Origin: Dasypus novemcinctus
Lineage: Eukaryota; Chordata; Mammalia; Cingulata; Dasypodidae
Direction: 5' to 3'
Assembly: GCF_030445035.2 (NCBI RefSeq)
Contig: NC_080694.1
Location: 75,822,094 to 75,886,093, forward strand
DNA length: 64,000 nucleotides
The position numbers were made by a program, and so were the translations under genes. The notes under the pieces were generated by a model. The model did no database searches, was not told the origin of the DNA, and saw nothing but the letters and a program-made list of their open reading frames with translations. Within the stretch, counting starts at the first letter, position 1; each line of letters starts with the position of its first letter. Positions 3,756-51,218 of this stretch are shown here, piece after piece.

Positions 3756-3999
3756 AAGGAAGTAAAGGAAGGACGACGTGCCCCCTAGAGGAGGGCCCTG
3801 GGCAGGGAGACGGGCGCGCACCGCGCGGCTGGGGCACGTCCGGCTGGCCCTCCTCCCCTGCCGGTGGACTCCGCTGCTGGTCGCACTTGCCCCTCCCCCT
3901 GGTGTGTGCGCAGAGCTGTTTTCCCACCGTGGGGATGGGGGGACGTGAGTCACCGCATCTCCACCGGGTCGCGCGTGACCAAGAAGCCTCGGGGGGCGC

Positions 4000-4850
4000 C
4001 CTGCCGGGAGTGCGTGGGGGTGCGCGGGGGTGAGCGGGAGCCCCTACCAGGCGGGGGCTCAGGGTGGGGGCTCAGCCACGGGGGGGGCCCTGCTGGGAGT
4101 GTGTGGGGGTGTGCGGGGGTGAGCGGGGGTGAGCGGGAGCCCCTACCAGGCGGGGGCTCAGCTGCAGGGGTGCGCCCTGCCGGGAGTGCGTGGGGGTGCG
4201 TGGGGGTGAGCGGGAGCCCCTACCAGGGTGGGGCTCAGCAGCAGGGGGGCACCCTGCTGGGAGTGCGTGGGGGTGCGTGGGGCTGCGCGGGAGCCCCTAC
4301 CAGGTGGGGGCTCGGGGTGGGGGCTCAGCCGCGGGGGGCGCCCTGCTGGGAGTGCGTGGGGTGTGCGGGAGCCCCTACCAGGCGGGGGCTCAGCCGGGGG
4401 GGGGTGCGCCCTTCTGGGAGTGTGTGGGGGTGCATGGGAGCCCCTACCAGGCGGGGGCTCAGCCCCAGGGGGGGGCTCAGCCACGGGGGGGCGCCCTATC
4501 AGGAGTGCGTGGGGTGTGCGGGAGCCCCTAGCAGGCGGGGGCTCAGCCACAGGGAGGGGGCTCAGCCATGGGGGAGGGGGCTCAGCCGCGAGGGGGTCCC
4601 TGCTGGGAGTGCGTGGGGTGTGCGGGAGCCCCTACCAGGCCAGGACTCAGCCGCAGGGGGGTGCCCGGCCGGGAGTGCGTGGGGGTGCATGGGACTGCGC
4701 GGGAGCCCCTACCAGGCGGGGGCTCGGGGTGGGGGCTCAGCCGCGGGGGAGGGGGCTCAGCCGCGGGGGGGCGCCCTGCTGGGAGTGCGTGGGGGTGCGT
4801 GGGGTGCACGGGAGCCCCTACCAGGCGGGGGCTCGGGGTGGGGGCTCTGC
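4000..4850. repeat. Minisatellite, complex ~65-75 bp unit
   Basis: About a dozen imperfect repeats built from GGGAGTGCGTGGGGGTGCG, GGGAGCCCCTACCAGGCGGG and GGCTCAGCCGCGGGGGG. G-runs of 5-9 on the plus strand make it a strong candidate for G-quadruplex formation. Reading frames of up to ~400 aa across it are repeat artefacts. Confidence 0.9.
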
Positions 4851-17800: not shown

Positions 17801-20800
17801 ACCCACCCTGAATGGTGAGGACCCTGCGGGTGGCGTAGCTGAGCCTTGCGCTGAGGCTGGGGATCCGGGACGCCGCCTCGTCCACCTTCGCCACAGTGCT
17901 CAGGAGCCAGACCTGAGAGCTGGGGGACACGGTCGCTGAGGCCCTGGCCCTCCGCATACCCAGAGGACTTAGGGAGCCTCCAACTGACAGCTCACACTCT
18001 CCTGTGCTCTGCCTGAGCAGGGGAGCAGCGAAGGAATGGGTGGGAAAGAGACTGAAGCCCAGGCAGGGCCAGGAGCTGCAGTGCGTGTGCTGAGCCCTCT
18101 GCCCCTGCCGGAGCTGTGCCGTGTGTACGCTGACCCCCGTGCCCCTGCTGGAGCTGCGCCGTGCGCATGCTGAGTCCTCTGCCCCTGCCGGAGCTGCGCC
18201 GAGTGTATGCTGACCCCCATGCCCCTTCCAGAGCTGCGCCGAGCGTGCGCTGAACCCCTGCCCCTGCCGGAGCTGCGCCGTGCGTGCACTGAGCCCCCTG
18301 CCCCTGCCGGAGCTGCGCCACGCGCACGCTGAACCCCACGCCCCTGCTGGAACTGCGCTGATCCCCCTGCCCCTGCCGGAGCTGTGCCGAGCGTGCACTG
18401 ACCCCTCTGCCCCTGCTGGAGCTGCGCTGCGCGCACGCTGAGCCCTCTGCCCCTGCCGGAGCTGCGCCGAGTGTACGCTGACCCCTGTGCCCCTGCTGGT
18501 GCTGCACCGAGCATGCACTGACCCCTCTGCCCCTGCCGGAGCTGCGCCGTGCATGCGCTCACCCCTCTGCCCCTGCCGGAGCTGCGCCGTGCATGCGCTC
18601 ACCCCTCTGCCCCTGCTGGAGCTGCGCTGTGCGTGCGCTGACCCCTCTGCCCCTGCTGGAGCTGCGCCATGCGTGCGCTGAACCCCTGCCCCTGCCGGAG
18701 CTGCGCCGTGCATGCGCTCACCCCTCTGCCCCTGCCGGAGCTGCGCCGGGCGCACGCTGAGCCCTCTGCCCCTGCCGGAGCTGCGCCGTGTGCACGCTGA
18801 GCCCTCTGCCCCTGCCGGAGCTGCGCCAAGTGTACGCTGACCCCCGTGCCCCTGCCGGAGCTGCGCCGTACATGCGCTGAGTTTGCCCCTGCCGGAGCTG
18901 TGCTGTGCGTGCGCTGACCCCCGTGCCCCTGCCGGAGCTGCGCCAAGTGTACGCTGACCCCCGTGCCCCTGCCGGAGCTGCGCCGTACGTGCGCTGAGCC
19001 CCCTGCCCCTGCTGGAGCTGCGCCGTGCGTGCGCTCACCTCTCTGCCCCTGCCGGAGCTGTGCTGTGCGTGCGCTGACCCCTCTGCCCCTGCTGGAGCTG
19101 CGCCGTGCGTGCGCTGACTCCTCTGCCCCTGCCGGAGCCGCACCGTGCGTGCGCTGACCCATGTCCCTGCCAGAGCTGCGCCGTGCATGCGCTCACCCCT
19201 CTGCCCCTGCTGGAGCTGCGCTGCAATCCTGTCTGAGCTCCTCAGCAGGCAAAAGAAGAGAGAGCCCGAGCTCTTAAATGCCTTACCAACTGTCAGGTAA
19301 AAACAACCCAGGTGCTTATATGAAAGAGCGCTGCTGTTCCTGCTGCTGGGACCCACGGCAAGCTTCTCATTTGGTGTCTTCCCTAACAGTGCCCGGGTAA
19401 AGAGAATAGCTGCTCGGACCTGGCGCTGTGATGCGGGACCCAGACGGCCACGCCAGGAAGCTCTCCCGGCCCCAGCTATGGTCAGGCCTCAGGCCTCAAG
19501 GGCCACATCTGGGTGCAGGAACTGATGGTGCTTTCTAAGGTCAAATGCCAGAGGCTCTGACTCACCTCCGACCTTTCAAACAACCTGCTGCACTATTTCA
19601 GAACCAGTTTCTGTTCACTACTATGCACCAAAGCTCGGTGAGCCGAGGGGGCTTCTCCATGGGCAGGACTGACGGGCGGTGCCAGCAGCAGGCCAGGCCC
19701 CAGACCCCCAGGAGGGCCGAGGGTGGCTCAGAGAGGGTCAGACACTGCCCTGTAACGCCAGGGGAGCCTCAGGCACTCAGCACTAAGGCTGAGAGGAGGT
19801 CATCACCAGGGAAAGCGGTTCTTGTTTTCCACGGAGGTGATTCTACGGGACAATGAAGGCCGCGCAGCAAGTCGGTAATGGGGCTAAGAGGCTGGTTGAG
19901 AAACACAGGCTTGCAAATGATTAAGAAGGAAACTGGTGTATATTTCAGGTGGATTATCTAGCAAGTAGGTGTAGTTTTAAGAGAAATAGATGAAATGTTT
20001 TCCCAACTCAACAGGGCATGCCTGTGAAATTCTAGAGAGAAGGGAAGGGGAGAGGAGGAAGGGGAGGGCAGGGGAGGGAGGGGAAGGACGGGGGAGGGGA
20101 GGGAAGGGGAGGGTGCCCAAGCCCCCGTCCACGGGGAAGGCCTGCCCAGGACCCTGCTCGGCTCCAGCTGCTCAGACGGGGCTGCAGGAGCCGCCAGCGA
20201 TCCTGGTGATGGAGAAGGCAGCGCACGCCCCACACTGCCAGCGCTCTGGCCTCTCCTGCCTGGGGCCCAGGGCCCGGAAATGGATGCACCCGCCCTCCAC
20301 CCACTGGTACCTGCTCACAGAGTCCACCACCAGCCGGAGCTGCTCCTCGGCCGCAGCCGCCTGCTGCTGCTGCCTGAGCCTGGCCTCCTGGGCCCGGCTC
20401 AGCTCCCCCTGCAGGGCCTGGGGGGCAGGCTGGTCAGGAGGAGGCCGCTCCCTGGGCCCCAGGACCAGGAGTCTCCCTCCTTTCGGCCGGGCCGTCCCAG
20501 ACACTGACCTTGGCACCCATCCGCTCCATCTCCACCTGGGCGGCTTTGTCCTGCAGGGCGCGCTGGAGGACGGCCTCCTTCTGGCTCTGGGACGCGACCC
20601 TCCCCTCGAGTCCGGCCACCTGGGGAGGGGAGCAGGTGCGGGGGTCTCTGAGACAAGAAGCTCAGGTTCCCGAGAACGGCCTGAGCCCATTTCCTTCCAG
20701 AAACCCCTCCGGTGTGCCGCAGCCCGCCCCACACCCATATCCCCAACTCGCCTTCCGGCCATCCCAGCTCCGGCAGGCCCATCCCGCAGCCCTCTCGCTC

Positions 20801-39834: not shown

Positions 39835-40364
39835 CGCTCTGCCGTCTGCCGAGGTGACGGCTCCGGAGGAGGGGGAGGGGTGGGCCCGGGACGCGGCTGA
39901 GCCCCAGCACCCCCCCCCCGGCTCCACGGCCCAGCCCCCCGCCGGTGCGGAGCGCCCGCGGCCCCGAGCCCGCCCCGGCGTGCCCGCTGGCTGGTAGGGT
40001 CGTTTGCAGACGCTCTGTGGAGTGTATCTGCTTGGGGTGGAGGAGCATCAGGTGGGGGAGCGGCAGAGGAGGTCTGGACGCCCGGGGCAGGTGAGGGCCC
40101 CCCCGCACCCCGACTGGCTGCGCGGCTGCGGGGAGGTGCGGCGGGCGCCGTGCTGCTGTCGCCTGCCGCCCCCACCTCGAGGGGCTTGCTGTCAGGCGGG
40201 CAAACCAGCCGGAAGGGCCCGGAGGAGGAGCTCCGCGGAGCCTTGCTCCAGACCAGGTGGACACCACCCGCTGACCCCTGGGTCTGAAGCCAACGGGAGG
40301 ACAGACTCAGGCCCTGACCACCGACGCCTCAACTCACACCTCCCCCTGCTCGCTGTGGGCAGCG

Positions 40365-41215
40365 CCCCACCTCTGAGCAGCACCCCACCTTTGTAGACCA
40401 GTGCCCCACCTCTGTGGACCAGCACCACACCTCTGTGGGCAGCACCCCACCTCCAGGCCAGCACCCCACCTCTGTGGACCAGCACCCCACCTCTGTGGGC
40501 AGCACTCCACCTCCAGGTCAGCACCCCACCTCTGTGGACCAGCACCCCTCCTCTGAATGGCACCCCGTCTCTGGGCAGCACCCCACCTCTGTGGACCAGC
40601 ACCCCATCTCTTTAGGCAGCACCCCACCTCTGGGGACCCCACCTCTGGTCAGCACCCCACCTCTGGCAGCGCCCCACCTCTGGGCAGCACCCCACCTCTG
40701 GGCAGCACCCCACCTCTGTGGGAAGCACCCCACCTCTGGACCATCACCCCACCTCCGGGCAGCACCCCACCTCTGCGGGTAGCACCCCATCTCTTTAGGC
40801 AGCACCCCACCTCTGCGGGTAGCACCCCATCTCTTTAGGCAGCACCCCACTCTGGGGACCCCGCCTCTGGGCAGCACCCCACCTCTGGACCATCACCCCA
40901 CCTCTGGGCAGCACCCTACCTCTGTGGACCCCACCTCTGGGCAGCACCCCACCTCTGGGCCAGCACCCCATCTCTTTAGGCAGCACCCCACCTCCGGGCC
41001 AGCACCCCATCTCTTTAGGCAGCACCCACCTCTGGGCACCCCACCTCTGGGCACCCCACCTCTGCGGGTAGCACCCCATCTCTTTAGGCAGCACCCGCCT
41101 CTGGGCAGCACCCCACTTCCGGGCCAGCACCCCATCTCTTTAGGCAGCACCCCACCTCTGCGGGTAGCACTCCATCTCTTTAGGCAGCACCCACCTCTGG
41201 GCACCCCACATCTGG
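40365..41215. repeat. Minisatellite, ~18 bp unit (CAGCACCCCACCTCTGGG)
   Basis: About forty imperfect units of GGGCAGCACCCCACCTCT with ~36-bp higher-order variants, including TGGACCAGCACCCCACCTCT and CATCTCTTTAGG. Open frames across it are repeat artefacts. Confidence 0.93.
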
Positions 41216-41984: not shown

Positions 41985-42690
41985 CGGGCGGGGGGACACA
42001 GGGACCCGCCCAGGGGGAGAGCCAGGGCGGGGGGCGCCCCCTCACAGGGAGAGTTGGGGAAGGGGGGACCTGCCCATGTGGAGAGCAGGGGCGGAGGGGT
42101 GGGCACCCGCCCACGGGGGAGAGCCGGGGAGGGGGGGCACCCGCCCACGGGGAGAGCTGGTGGGGGGGACACGGGGACCCGCCCATGGGGAGAGCCAGGG
42201 CAGGGGGCGCCCTCCCACGGGGAGAGCTGGCAGGGGGACACGGGGACCCACCCACGGGGAGAGCCAGGGCAGGGGGCACCCCCTCACAGGGAGAGTTGGG
42301 GCAGGGGGGACCCGCCCACGGTGAGAGCAGGGGTGGAGGGGTGGGCACCCGCCCACGGGGAGAGCCAGGGCAGGGGGCGCCCCCTCATGGGGGAAAGTTG
42401 GGGCACGGGGGGACCCGCCCATGTGGAGAGCAGGGGTGGAGGGAAAGCCGGCAGGGGGGGGACATGGGGACCCGCCCACAGGGAGAGCCAGGGCAGGGGG
42501 CACCCCCTCACAGGGGAGAGTTGGGGCAGAAGGGACACCCACCCATGTGGAGAGCAGGGGTGGGGGGAGAGCCTGGGGGGGGTACCCGCCCACGGGGAGA
42601 GCGGGGGGAGGTTCACCTGCCCACCGGGGCGAGCAGGGGTGGGGGTGGCGCTCATGGGGGAGGGGGGCACCCGCCCATGGGGAGAGCCGG
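41985..42690. repeat. Minisatellite, ~60-bp unit (CACCCGCCCACGGGGAGAGC...)
   Basis: GACCCGCCCACGGGGAGAGC, CAGGGCAGGGGGCGCCCCCT and CACAGGGAGAGTTGGGG alternate about a dozen times. G-runs are plentiful. Confidence 0.93.
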
Positions 42691-45940: not shown

Positions 45941-46300
45941 CTCTATACATGTTTTTAGAAAACAAAAGTACCAACGTTCTCAGAATTGTGCTCCCGAGGA
46001 GGCGACGGCTCCGCCAGCTCTGCCCTCACCTTGGTGCTCTCCCACGTCGTCATCACCACAAACGCGCTTTTTAAAACAAAAGTGAGAGCCGACTCTTCGG
46101 GACTTCTGTTCCCTGAATTCTCACGTCTCACTCAGACCTCCCTTCTGGCTCCACCCCGGGAGATACTGGTGGGGTCACCAGCGCTTCCTAGTTGGGGCCT
46201 TATCTGACGTGCCCTCAGCAGCCCGTGACTCACGCCTCGTGACTCGTCTCCTCCTTCCCTCCACCTGCTCTGCTCCCTCTGCTCAGCCTGCAGGCATGCC

Positions 46301-46460
46301 TGGAGAACCCACCCACCTCGGGGTCCCTTCCCTCCCAGCCTGGAGAACCCACCCACCTCGGGGTCCCTTCCCTCCCAGCCTGGAGAACCCACCCACCTCG
46401 GGGTCCCTTCCCTCCCAGCCTGGAGAACCCACCCACCTCGGGGTCCCTTCCCTCCCAGCT
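46301..46460. repeat. Four identical 40-bp tandem repeats
   Basis: The unit TGGAGAACCCACCCACCTCG + GGGTCCCTTCCCTCCCAGCC is repeated at 46301, 46341, 46381 and 46421. The four copies differ only at the last base (C in three, T in the last). Confidence 0.98.
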
Positions 46461-47620: not shown

Positions 47621-47723
47621 TCGTGGGGTTACGAGTGTTTCTGTGTCCTGACCACCCCCTCCCCCCGCATTAAAGGTTATTATTTTTTAAAATCTGCTTT
47701 TGTATCTGACCTTTCAGCATCTA

Positions 47724-50208
47724 TTAGGCTGGTGCAAAAGTAATTGCGGTTTTACGTTGTTTGGTATTGGCATACATTCTTAAATAAATATGGTTGTTAT
47801 ACATCATTTTAATGTGCATTTCTTGCCTTTTTTTTTGCTAATGACTTATCACTTGCAATTTACCTTATATTTATTTTAGGCTATGGAAATGATGTTAGAC
47901 AGAAAGCAAATCTGAGTGGTTTTCTTATTTGAGTTCAAAATGGGTTGTAAAGCAGCATAGGCAACTCGCAGCATCAACAACGCATTTGGCCGGGAACTGC
48001 TAACGAGCGTACAGTGCAGTGGGAGTTCAAGGAGTTTTGCAAAGGAGACAGATCCTTGAAGGTGGGTGTAGCAGCCGGCTGCTGGACGTTGACCAGGACC
48101 AGCTGAGAGCAGTCGTCAAAGCTGATCCTCGCAACTGCAAGAGGAGTTACCGAAGATTCACATCAGCCATCTACTGTCCAGCATTTGAAGCAAATTGGAA
48201 AGGTGAAACAGCTTGTAAGTGGGTGCCTCATGAACTGACCGAAAATTTTTAAAAGTCATTGTTTTGAAGAGTCGTCTTTTCTTATTCTACACAACAGCGA
48301 GCCACTTGTTTGGATTGTGATGTGTGATGAAAAGTGGATTTTACACGAAAACCACCGATGACCAGCTCAGTGTTGGACTGAGAAGAAGCGACAAAGCGCT
48401 TCCCAAAGCCAAACTTGTACCTAAAAAAGGGCTTGGTCACTCTGTGGTGGCTGCTGGTGGCTGCTGGTGGCTGCTGGTGGCTGCTGGTGGCTGCTGGTGG
48501 CTGCTGGTGGCCTGCTGGTGGCTGCTGCGGCCTGCTGGTGGCCTGCTGGTGGCTGCTGGTGGCCTGCTGGTGGCTGCTGGTGGCCTGCTGGTGGCTGCTG
48601 GTGGCTGCTGGTGGCTGCTGGTGGCTGCTGGTGGCCTGCTGGTGCCTGCTGGTGGCTGCTGCGGCCTGCTGGTGGCTGCTGGTGGCTGCTGGTGGCCTGC
48701 TGGTGGCCTGCTGGTGGCCTGCTGGTGGCTGCTGCGGCCTGCTGGTGGCCTGCTGGTGGCCTGCTGATGGCCTGCTGGTGGCTGCTGGTGGCTGCTGGTG
48801 GCTGCTGGTGGCCTGCTGGTGGCTGCTGGTGGCCTGCTGGTGGCCTGCTGGTGGCTGCTGGTGGCTGCTGGTGGCTGCTGGTGGCCTGCTGGTGGCTGCT
48901 GGTGGCCTGCTGGTGGCCTGCTGGTGGCTGCTGGTGGCTGCTGCGGCCTGCTGGTGGCCTGCTGGTGGCCTGCTGATGGCCTGCTGGTGGCTGCTGCGGC
49001 CTGCTGGTGGCTGCTGGTGGCTGCTGGTGGCCTGCTGGTGGCTGCTGGTGGCCTGCTGGTGGCTGCTGCGGCCTGCTGGTGGCTGCTGGTGGCTGCTGGT
49101 GGCCTGCTGGTGGCTGCTGGTGGCTGCTGGTGGCCTGCTGGTGGCTGCTGGTGGCCTGCTGGTGGCCTGCTGGTGGCTGCTGCGGCCTGCTGGTGGCTGC
49201 TGGTGGCTGCTGGTGGCCTGCTGGTGGCCTGCTGGTGGCCTGCTGGTGGCTGCTGGTGGCCTGCTGGTGGCTGCTGGTGGCTGCTGGTGGCTGCTGGTGG
49301 CCTGCTGGTGGCTGCTGCGGCCTGCTGGTGGCTGCTGGTGGCTGCTGGTGGCTGCTGGTGGCCTGCTGGTGGCTGCTGCGGCCTGCTGGTGGCTGCTGGT
49401 GGCTGCTGGTGGCCTGCTGGTGGCTGCTGGTGGCTGCTGCCGGCCTGCTGGTGGCTGCTGGTGGCCTGCTGGTGGCTGCTGGTGGCTGCTGGTGGCTGCT
49501 GGTGGCCTGCTGGTGGCCTGCTGATGGCCTGCTGGTGGCTGCTGGTGGCTGCTGGTGGCTGCTGGTGGCTGCTGCCGGCCTGCTGGTGGCTGCTGGTGGC
49601 TGCTGGTGGCCTGCTGGTGGCTGCTGGTGGCTGCTGGTGGCCTGCTGGTGGCTGCTGCCTGTCTGCTGCCCGTCTGCTGCCCGCCTGCTCCACTGCGGCT
49701 TTCGGAATCCCAGCGAAACCATTCCACCTGAGAAGTACGCTCGCAAATCGGTGAGATGCACCAAAAGCTGCAATGCCTTCCGCAGCACTGGTCAACAGAA
49801 AGGGCCCAGTTCTTCTCCATGACAACGCCCGACCGCACATCGCACAACCAACGCTTCAAAAGTTGAACGAATTGGGCTATGAAGTTTTGCCTCATCTGCC
49901 ATAGTCACCTGACCTCTTGCCAACCAGCTTCCGTATACCCCCGATCCCAACCCCACCCCCCGACTACCACTTCTTCAAGCATCTCAGAAACTTTTTGCAA
50001 AACCTGCAGGATGCAGAAAATGCTTTCCAAGAGTTCTTTGAATCCTGAAGTGTGGGTTTTTATGCTACAAGAATAAACAAACTTATTTCTCATTGGCAAA
50101 AGTGTTGTGATTGTAATGTTTCCTATTTTAATAAAGATGTGTTTGAGCCTAGTTATAAAGATTTAAAATTCATGGTCTGAAACCACAATTCCTTTTGCAC
50201 CAAGCTAA
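47724..50208 (+). mobile_element. mariner DNA transposon (Hsmar1/cecropia-like), decayed, with internal minisatellite
   Basis: Begins TTAGGCTGGTGCAAAAGTAA and ends with its inverted counterpart (TTAGCTTGGTGCAAAAGGAA on the minus strand), flanked by TA at 47722-47723 and 50209-50210. Inside are transposase remnants on the plus strand: MEMMLDRKQ near 47883, a CDEKW catalytic-Asp motif near 48325, HDNARPH near 49816, and PDYHFF near 49970. Several stops and frameshifts break the frame (for example soon after the start), so it is inactive. The wording and ends are closest to Hsmar1, the primate mariner behind SETMAR, as I know it. A 1.24-kb minisatellite splits the catalytic region. No autonomous function expected. 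Confidence 0.93.
48444..49690 (+). repeat. 10/11-bp minisatellite inside the mariner (GGTGGCTGCT / GGTGGCCTGCT)
   Basis: About 115-120 units: GGTGGCTGCT, GGTGGCCTGCT and the variant GCGGCCTGCT, arranged in higher-order runs. It begins right after the transposase VTVWW-like codons (TCACTCTGTGGTGG) and gives way through GCCTGTCTGCTGCCCGTCTG back to transposase sequence (CACTGCGGCTTTCGGAATCC). Seven open frames over it are artefacts. The plus strand has GG every 3-5 bases and CTG pairs. Confidence 0.97.
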
Positions 50209-50214
50209 TAGTTC

Positions 50215-50757: not shown

Positions 50758-50769
50758 AAATCAAACTGC

Positions 50770-51206
50770 AGGTGGTGGACTTGGCCCAGTGGTTAGGGCG
50801 ACCGTCTACAACACAGGAGGTCCGCGGTTCAAACCCCGGGCCTCCTTGACCCGTGTGGAGCTGGCCCACGCGCAGTGCTGATGCGCGCGCAAGAAGTGCC
50901 CTGCCATGCAGGGGTGTCCCCTGCGTAGGGGAGCCCCAAGCGCAAGGAGTGCGCCCTGTAAGGAGAGCTGCCCAGTGTGAAAGAAAGTGCAGCCTGCCCA
51001 GGAATGGCGCCGCCCACACGGAGAGCTGACACAGCAAGATGACGAAACCAAAAGTGACACAGCAAGGTGATGCAACCAAAAGAAACACAGATTCCCGTGC
51101 CGCCGACAACAGAAGTGGACAAAGAAGACGCAGCAAATAGACACAGAGAACAGACAACCGGGGTGGGAGGGGGGAGGGGAGAGATAAATAAATAAATCTT
51201 AAAAAA
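50770..51206 (+). mobile_element. DAS-type SINE with TSD and internal duplication
   Basis: AAATCAAACTGC flanks at 50758-50769 and 51207-51218. The tail contains an extra copy of ACACAGCAAGATGACG.. ACCAAAAG (about 51030-51080), so one ~33-bp block is duplicated. Confidence 0.93.
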
Positions 51207-51218
51207 AAATCAAACTGC

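What the first reader, a model, noticed from the sequence alone, without database searches (positions are those of the whole stretch)
48444..49690. Minisatellite born inside a transposase gene
About 115-120 units of GGTGGCTGCT / GGTGGCCTGCT lie exactly between the VWW-like codons and the next transposase block (GFRNPSETI). The unit reads like an amplified piece of the transposase codons themselves (TGGTGG..TCTGCTGCTGG type). A DNA transposon seems to have seeded a new VNTR. The G-rich strand with paired CTG could form hairpins or quadruplexes.
Basis: partly seen in the sequence, partly recalled or inferred. Interest (0 to 1): 0.78.

Follow-up and report, generated by a model that had tools for sequence, protein, structure and literature searches.

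The report
Minisatellite born inside a dead mariner
A decayed mariner "jumping gene" carries a run of about 119 ten- to eleven-letter repeats that appears to have grown out of a few of its own transposase codons; it is a tidy example of a known way in which new repeats are born, not a new kind of system.

Summary
Observation confirmed. A 1.2-kb tandem array (TRF 48445-49657; 119 units in my parse) sits inside a full-length but dead mariner at 47724-50208 (inverted ends 26 of 31 identical, TA on both sides; 1,263 bp without the array). The left flank reads to the WW codons of a SETMAR/Hsmar1-type transposase (end 48450); the right flank resumes with SAA, the next codons (from 49673). No codon need be missing, so the array looks like an expansion in place. 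Its + strand fits the back-translated SETMAR codons better (16.0 of 22) than eight other arrays of the window on either strand (13.3-14.9). Those codons can form a cryptic 11-bp repeat, as the Haber-Louis slippage model wants. The window is rich in minisatellites (30 arrays, 12% of its bases), a likely co-factor. Not testable here: length polymorphism, assembly error and sister copies, because the genome search did not complete; the seed rests on a human protein relative. TE-derived minisatellites are well documented. Verdict: real, core idea supported, new member of a known kind, modest interest.

The parts
47722..47723 (.). left TA target-site dinucleotide
   Evidence: sequence printed; TA duplication as a mariner hallmark is established knowledge
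47724..50208 (+). full-length but decayed mariner, 2,485 bp with the array, 1,263 bp without the 1,222 bases 48451-49672
   Evidence: inverted ends 26 of 31 identical and TA on both sides (whose script printed 1,264 through an off-by-one in the array length); transposase pieces match SETMAR and Mos1
47724..47754 (+). left terminal inverted repeat
   Evidence: BLAST finds the same pair at 87.5% over 32 bp
48388..48450 (+). transposase piece ATKRFPKPNLYLKKGLVTLWW; WW codons end at 48450
   Evidence: phmmer to 3f2k_A residues 59-80, E 0.0018 (query 48388-48462); Pfam Transposase_1 E 0.0075, below its cut-off
48445..49657 (+). minisatellite array of mixed 10/11-bp units
   Evidence: TRF; unit parse
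49652..49689 (+). 3' edge: 3.5 copies of an 11-bp unit CTGCTGCCCGT that resembles the SAA codons
   Evidence: TRF
49673..49744 (+). transposase resumes: SAARLLHCGFRNPSETIPPEKYAR
   Evidence: phmmer to 3f2k_A residues 80-103, E 0.0045; start located. A shorter query from 49682 matched residues 84-103 at E 0.066
49779..49901 (+). transposase piece SAALVNRKGPVLLHDNARPHIAQPTLQKLNELGYEVLPHLP
   Evidence: phmmer to SETMAR 3f2k_A E 3e-20, Mos1 E 0.034 (query 49755-49901)
50178..50208 (-). right terminal inverted repeat
50209..50210 (.). right TA target-site dinucleotide

Best explanation
The array was born in place from the transposase codons W-W-S-A-A-G-L of one dead mariner copy. Back-translated, these read TGGTGGTCNGCNGCNGGNCTN. 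They can form an imperfect 11-bp direct repeat (xTGGTGGTCNG then CNGCNGGNCTN) with a short word GGTCNG / GGNCTN 11 bp apart. Replication slippage or unequal exchange between these short repeats made the first duplications (inferred); the three and a half SAA-like 11-bp units at the right edge may be their trace (units shown, meaning inferred). A one-base loss gave the 10-bp form (inferred). Slippage, conversion or unequal exchange inside the longer homology then amplified the array to about 119 units (inferred). The element is now a fossil (shown: many stops and frame changes). The GC-rich, minisatellite-rich neighbourhood probably made expansion more likely (inferred). No function is indicated.
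For: Left flank matches SETMAR up to WW/S80 and right flank from S80 on. A peptide of the two flanks with four X for SAAG aligns without a gap to SETMAR 59-103, E 1.5e-11 (the number of X was my choice). The element without the array is 1,263 bp with both ends and TA. Mean best 22-bp fit to 300 random codings of the SETMAR piece: 16.0 for the array's + strand, 13.6 for its - strand, 13.35-14.86 for the 16 strands of eight other arrays. Shuffled proteins of the same composition reach the array's mean in 1.4% of 1000 cases. Letter-permuted units reach the consensus unit's score in 0 of 200. The 11-bp block repeat starting one base before WW is the second highest of 114 positions, 0.52 against a mean of 0.32. 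The model is described in passages of PMC6947457 and section 3.4 of PMC3389668.
Against: No uninterrupted DNA copy was obtained, so the seed is back-translated from human SETMAR with a recalled codon-usage table. The edges are ambiguous: TGGTGG is also part of the unit and the last SAA codons are one of the 3.5 edge units, so up to six codons (WWSAAG) could be either old coding sequence or array; the unambiguous flanks are VTL and LLHC. The place of the best fit is not specific: on the + strand the commonest best position of three of eight other arrays (from 3985, 39304 and 42004), and that of this array's own - strand, also covers WW. The strongest 11-bp self-repeat of the piece is at nt 40 (0.54), just upstream. 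The permutation margin is small: 14.73 against a maximum of 14.49.
Confidence: 0.8

Rival explanations
1. A pre-existing minisatellite or filler DNA was put into the mariner at WW|SAA, by break repair or gene conversion, and only happens to resemble the local codons.
For: The window holds 30 merged tandem arrays covering 7,842 bp, so such DNA is common nearby; the best-fit position is not specific to this array.
Against: The two exact unit words are absent elsewhere in the window. No codon need be missing. The fit to the local codons exceeds that of the other arrays.
Confidence: 0.08
2. Assembly artefact: the length, or even the presence, of the array comes from mis-joined or collapsed reads.
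For: Near-identical 10-11-bp units are hard to assemble; no reads could be examined.
Against: The units are a varied mix with singletons and edge variants, and both flanks belong to one transposase.
Confidence: 0.06
3. Regional proneness is the main cause: any suitable stretch here would have expanded, and the mariner merely supplied the letters. This can be true together with the best explanation.
For: 30 arrays, nine over 200 bp, in 64 kb at 59% GC. Minisatellites accumulate in (sub)telomeric regions (passage of PMC6947457).
Against: The chromosome position is unknown, and no other mariner copy could be compared.
Confidence: 0.45

Closest known systems
TE-derived minisatellites of the human genome (Ahmed and Liang 2012, PMC3389668)
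   Same: Tandem repeat inside an interspersed element, grown by local duplication; the paper counts 7,276 of 31,472 minisatellites by its criteria (abstract, first part of section 3, sections 3.3 and 3.4 seen).
   Different: Its criteria ask for units over 20 bp, and the sources it singles out are Alu, ERV/LTR, L1 and SVA; here the unit is 10/11 bp and the source a mariner coding region.
Haber and Louis 1998 model of minisatellite origin
   Same: Very short repeats one period apart at the seed (here only by back-translation).
   Different: The paper itself was not seen; its content is taken from PMC6947457 (passages) and PMC3389668.
Alu-, MaLR- and SINE B1-derived minisatellites (p-lambda-g3, Ms6-hm, (GGCAGA)n)
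   Same: Minisatellite with a TE as source (tables: PMC9659126; PMC6947457).
   Different: Class I elements; here class II.
CACTA-like Jozin Tnp2 transposase region (Chenopodium satellite) and Tc1-mariner MITE (Xenopus miDNA4)
   Same: Transposase or Tc1/mariner sequence tied to a tandem repeat (table of PMC9659126).
   Different: Listed as a satellite and as a repeat inside a MITE; here one local array inside transposase coding sequence.
SETMAR / Hsmar1 mariner
   Same: Transposase pieces match SETMAR chains best, up to E 3e-20.
   Different: This copy is dead and carries a 1.2-kb array between the positions of residues 79 and 80 of chain 3f2k_A.

Membership tests
mariner element, Hsmar1-like | TA on both sides of the element | tested here: met
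   47722-47723 and 50209-50210
mariner element, Hsmar1-like | terminal inverted repeats of about 30 bp | tested here: met
   26 of 31 bases identical
mariner element, Hsmar1-like | mariner transposase, nearest to SETMAR among solved structures | tested here: met
   SETMAR E 3e-20 against Mos1 E 0.034; flank peptide SETMAR E 1.5e-11 against Mos1 E 0.034. Pfam Transposase_1 is below its cut-off for one piece and not found for the other; the N-terminal part was not scanned because it holds stops
mariner element, Hsmar1-like | length about 1.3 kb (recalled) | tested here: met
   1,263 bp without the array (one search corrected by one base)
mariner element, Hsmar1-like | nucleotide match to the Hsmar1 consensus | not testable with these tools
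   no library of eukaryotic repeats on hand; pattern scans found nothing
minisatellite | local head-to-tail array of units of roughly 10-100 bp | tested here: met
   119 units of 10-12 bp
VNTR | copy number differs between individuals | not testable with these tools
   one assembly; genome search not answered
TE-derived tandem repeat | the unit comes from the element in which the array lies | tested here: inconclusive
   supported by the junction and the fit scores, but only through a protein relative; no sister DNA copy seen
G-quadruplex with three or more layers | four runs of at least three G with short loops | tested here: not met
   no GGG in the array. Two-G runs: 0 matches if loops hold no G, 52 non-overlapping if any letter is allowed

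The most novel reading that the evidence does not exclude
The WWSAAGL codons of Hsmar1-type transposases are a built-in expansion hotspot: TGGTGG followed by codons for SAAGL readily makes the cryptic 11-bp repeat, so independent minisatellites will be found at the same codons in other copies and species.
Probability: 0.12. Interest if true: 0.5.

Novelty: new member of a known kind. Interest (0 to 1): 0.27.

Why it matters
It is an unusually clean record of minisatellite birth: the parent is a coding element with a known protein relative, so the place of expansion can be fixed to a few codons and the seed can be named. With sister copies of the mariner the first duplication steps could be worked out, which is hard for arrays of unknown parentage. 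It also gives a testable prediction, recurrence at the same codons in other copies.

Tried and rejected
Sister copies in the source genome: the service did not answer in any of eight tries, so the key comparison is missing. Relatives in collections: viral contigs gave 32 pattern hits and two loci, L001 and L002, each with a 17-residue match at 71%, not followed further; genome contigs gave 234 pattern hits and no confirmed relative. The back-translated WWSAAGLIHY pattern gave 0 in viral contigs and 0 in genome contigs.

Papers: a 13-letter string recalled from Hsmar1 was found in one paper, by its title on osteosarcoma (listing only). A search for armadillo mariners gave one general paper, not opened (listing only). 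Searches listed 20 of 832, 7 of 7, 20 of 41 and 20 of 52 papers. Among the listed titles and abstract starts I saw no report of a minisatellite in Hsmar1-type transposase codons; I opened three papers, each in part (PMC3389668, PMC9659126, PMC6947457), and make no claim that none exists.

Higher-order repeats: not supported as strong. The longest repeated run is 9 units and 1005 of 2000 shuffles reach it. Distinct triplets of units number 29 against a mean of 37.2 (0 of 2000 shuffles as few) and quadruplets 48 against 57.9 (3 of 2000), but runs of 5, 6 and 8 are as few in 147, 189 and 551 of 2000, and mutual information at lags 1-12 is reached by at least 96 of 2000 shuffles. Part of the triplet effect is that the rarer units have one left neighbour each (9 of 9, 3 of 3 and 2 of 2).

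Folding: one 101-base piece of the + strand folds as DNA better than 199 of 200 shuffles (z -2.51); for the - strand 179 of 200 shuffles fold at least as well (z +1.31). This is a prediction on one piece. A quadruplex of three or more layers is rejected.

Full report
The observation. TRF reports an array at 48445-49657 with period 10 (117.2 copies) and period 31. My parse gives 119 contiguous units from 48442 to 49676, the edge units overlapping the flanking codons: 65 CTGGTGGCTG, 36 CTGGTGGCCTG, 9 CTGCGGCCTG, 3 CTGATGGCCTG, 2 CTGCCGGCCTG and four singletons. The 1,235 bases parsed hold 577 G, 348 T, 307 C and 3 A on the + strand.

The host element. The array lies in a full-length mariner at 47724-50208, with inverted ends of which 26 of 31 bases agree and TA on each side. 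Taking out the 1,222 bases between the WW and SAA codons leaves 1,263 bp (the script printed 1,264 through an off-by-one), close to the length I recall for Hsmar1. Pieces of transposase match SETMAR chains best: 49755-49901 at E 3e-20, Mos1 at E 0.034, and 48388-48462 at E 0.0018. Pfam gives Transposase_1 for the left piece only, E 0.0075 and below its cut-off; for the right piece it gave only an unrelated weak match. The frames left of the array hold many stops and the protein moves between frames, so the copy is dead.

The junctions. The left flank reads LVTLWW, the second W codon ending at 48450. The right flank reads SAARLLHCGFRNPSETI from 49673 and matches SETMAR from residue 80; a shorter query without SAA matched from residue 84 at E 0.066. 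SETMAR has IWWSAAGLIHYSF here. A peptide of the flanks with four X for SAAG aligns without a gap over 45 residues, E 1.5e-11; four was my choice. So the flanks can be read as consecutive codons. The edges blend into the array, however: TGGTGG is part of the unit, and the last SAA codons are one of 3.5 edge copies of an 11-bp unit. The unambiguous flanks are VTL and LLHC, and up to six codons could belong to either side. Either way the array stands where at most six codons stood.

Does the unit come from these codons? I had no uninterrupted DNA copy, so I used the SETMAR residues printed and random synonymous codings (codon usage recalled). In 1000 of 1000 codings the best 22-bp fit of the array starts at nt 41-56 of the 135-nt piece and so covers the WW codons at nt 57-62; 473 of 1000 lie within WWSAAGL plus 6 bases before or 8 after. 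Shuffled proteins of the same composition reach the mean best score in 1.4% of 1000 cases. With 300 codings the array's + strand scores 16.0 of 22, its - strand 13.6, and the eight other arrays over 200 bp 13.35-14.86 over both strands. A tandem of the consensus unit scores 14.73, above all 200 letter-permuted units (maximum 14.49), a small margin. Against: on the + strand three of the eight other arrays (from 3985, 39304 and 42004), and this array's own - strand, also have their commonest best position over WW, so the place of the fit is not specific and only the height of the score is. The strongest 11-bp self-repeat of the piece is at nt 40 (0.54); the one at nt 56, at WW, is second (0.52; mean 0.32). 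Local origin is well supported but rests on a protein relative, not on a sister copy.

Mechanism. The Haber and Louis model, as summarised in passages of PMC6947457 and in section 3.4 of PMC3389668, starts a minisatellite by slippage or unequal exchange between very short repeats and then expands it within the longer homology. The codons TGGTGGTCNGCNGCNGGNCTN allow such a repeat at 11 bp (GGTCNG and GGNCTN). The steps themselves are inferred. Shown are the junction, the 11-bp edge units and the mixture of 10- and 11-bp forms. Unit order is non-random for triplets (0 of 2000 shuffles as few) and quadruplets (3 of 2000), without a strong higher-order repeat. Of 119 units, 101 are of two types while the flanks are heavily decayed; this suggests an array younger than the insertion, or homogenised (inference).

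Surroundings. The window is 59% GC and holds 30 merged tandem arrays (period at least 7, score at least 50) covering 7,842 bp, nine of them over 200 bp; this one is the longest. A minisatellite-prone neighbourhood is a likely co-factor. A tRNA-like SINE at about 50770-51206, flanked by AAATCAAACTGC on both sides, has relatives in eight other places of the window. I recognise it from memory as an armadillo DAS-type SINE; no call confirms the species.

Structure. One 101-base piece of the + strand folds as DNA better than 199 of 200 shuffles (z -2.51); the - strand does not (z +1.31). There is no GGG run. The array holds 101 copies of GCTGGTGG on the + strand and none on the - strand; I recall this word as the E. 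coli Chi site. I know of no meaning for it in a mammal, but it could matter for clones in E. coli.

What is known. PMC3389668 (abstract, first part of section 3, sections 3.3 and 3.4) reports 7,276 TE-derived minisatellites in the human genome. The table of PMC9659126 lists many TE sources, among them a CACTA transposase region and a Tc1-mariner MITE. This is a new member of a known kind; its merit is that the place of birth can be fixed to a few codons.

Limits. The own-genome search did not complete in eight tries. Length polymorphism, other copies, orthologous sites and assembly errors remain untested.

Noticed in passing
48442-49676: 101 copies of the octamer GCTGGTGG on the + strand and 0 on the - strand; I recall it as the E. 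coli Chi site. The rest of the window has 5 on + and 6 on -.
   Followed up: partly
window 1-64000: High density of GC-rich minisatellites: 30 merged arrays covering 7,842 bp, for example 18081-19221 (40-bp unit), 3985-4847, 40353-41203 and 42004-42573.
   Followed up: partly
46298-46459: 4.1 copies of a 40-bp unit with 100% matches, perhaps a very recent tandem duplication.
   Followed up: no
50758-51218: tRNA-derived SINE with a 12-bp flanking duplication and relatives in eight other places, near 5.7-6.0, 7.3, 8.6, 27.0, 43.9, 44.6, 45.2 and 58.4 kb. Three of ARAGORN's four tRNA calls fall on such copies. From memory it looks like an armadillo DAS SINE.
   Followed up: partly
L001 2158-2208 and L002 665-715: Two viral-collection contigs with a 17-residue match (71%) to the transposase piece; nature not examined.
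   Followed up: no
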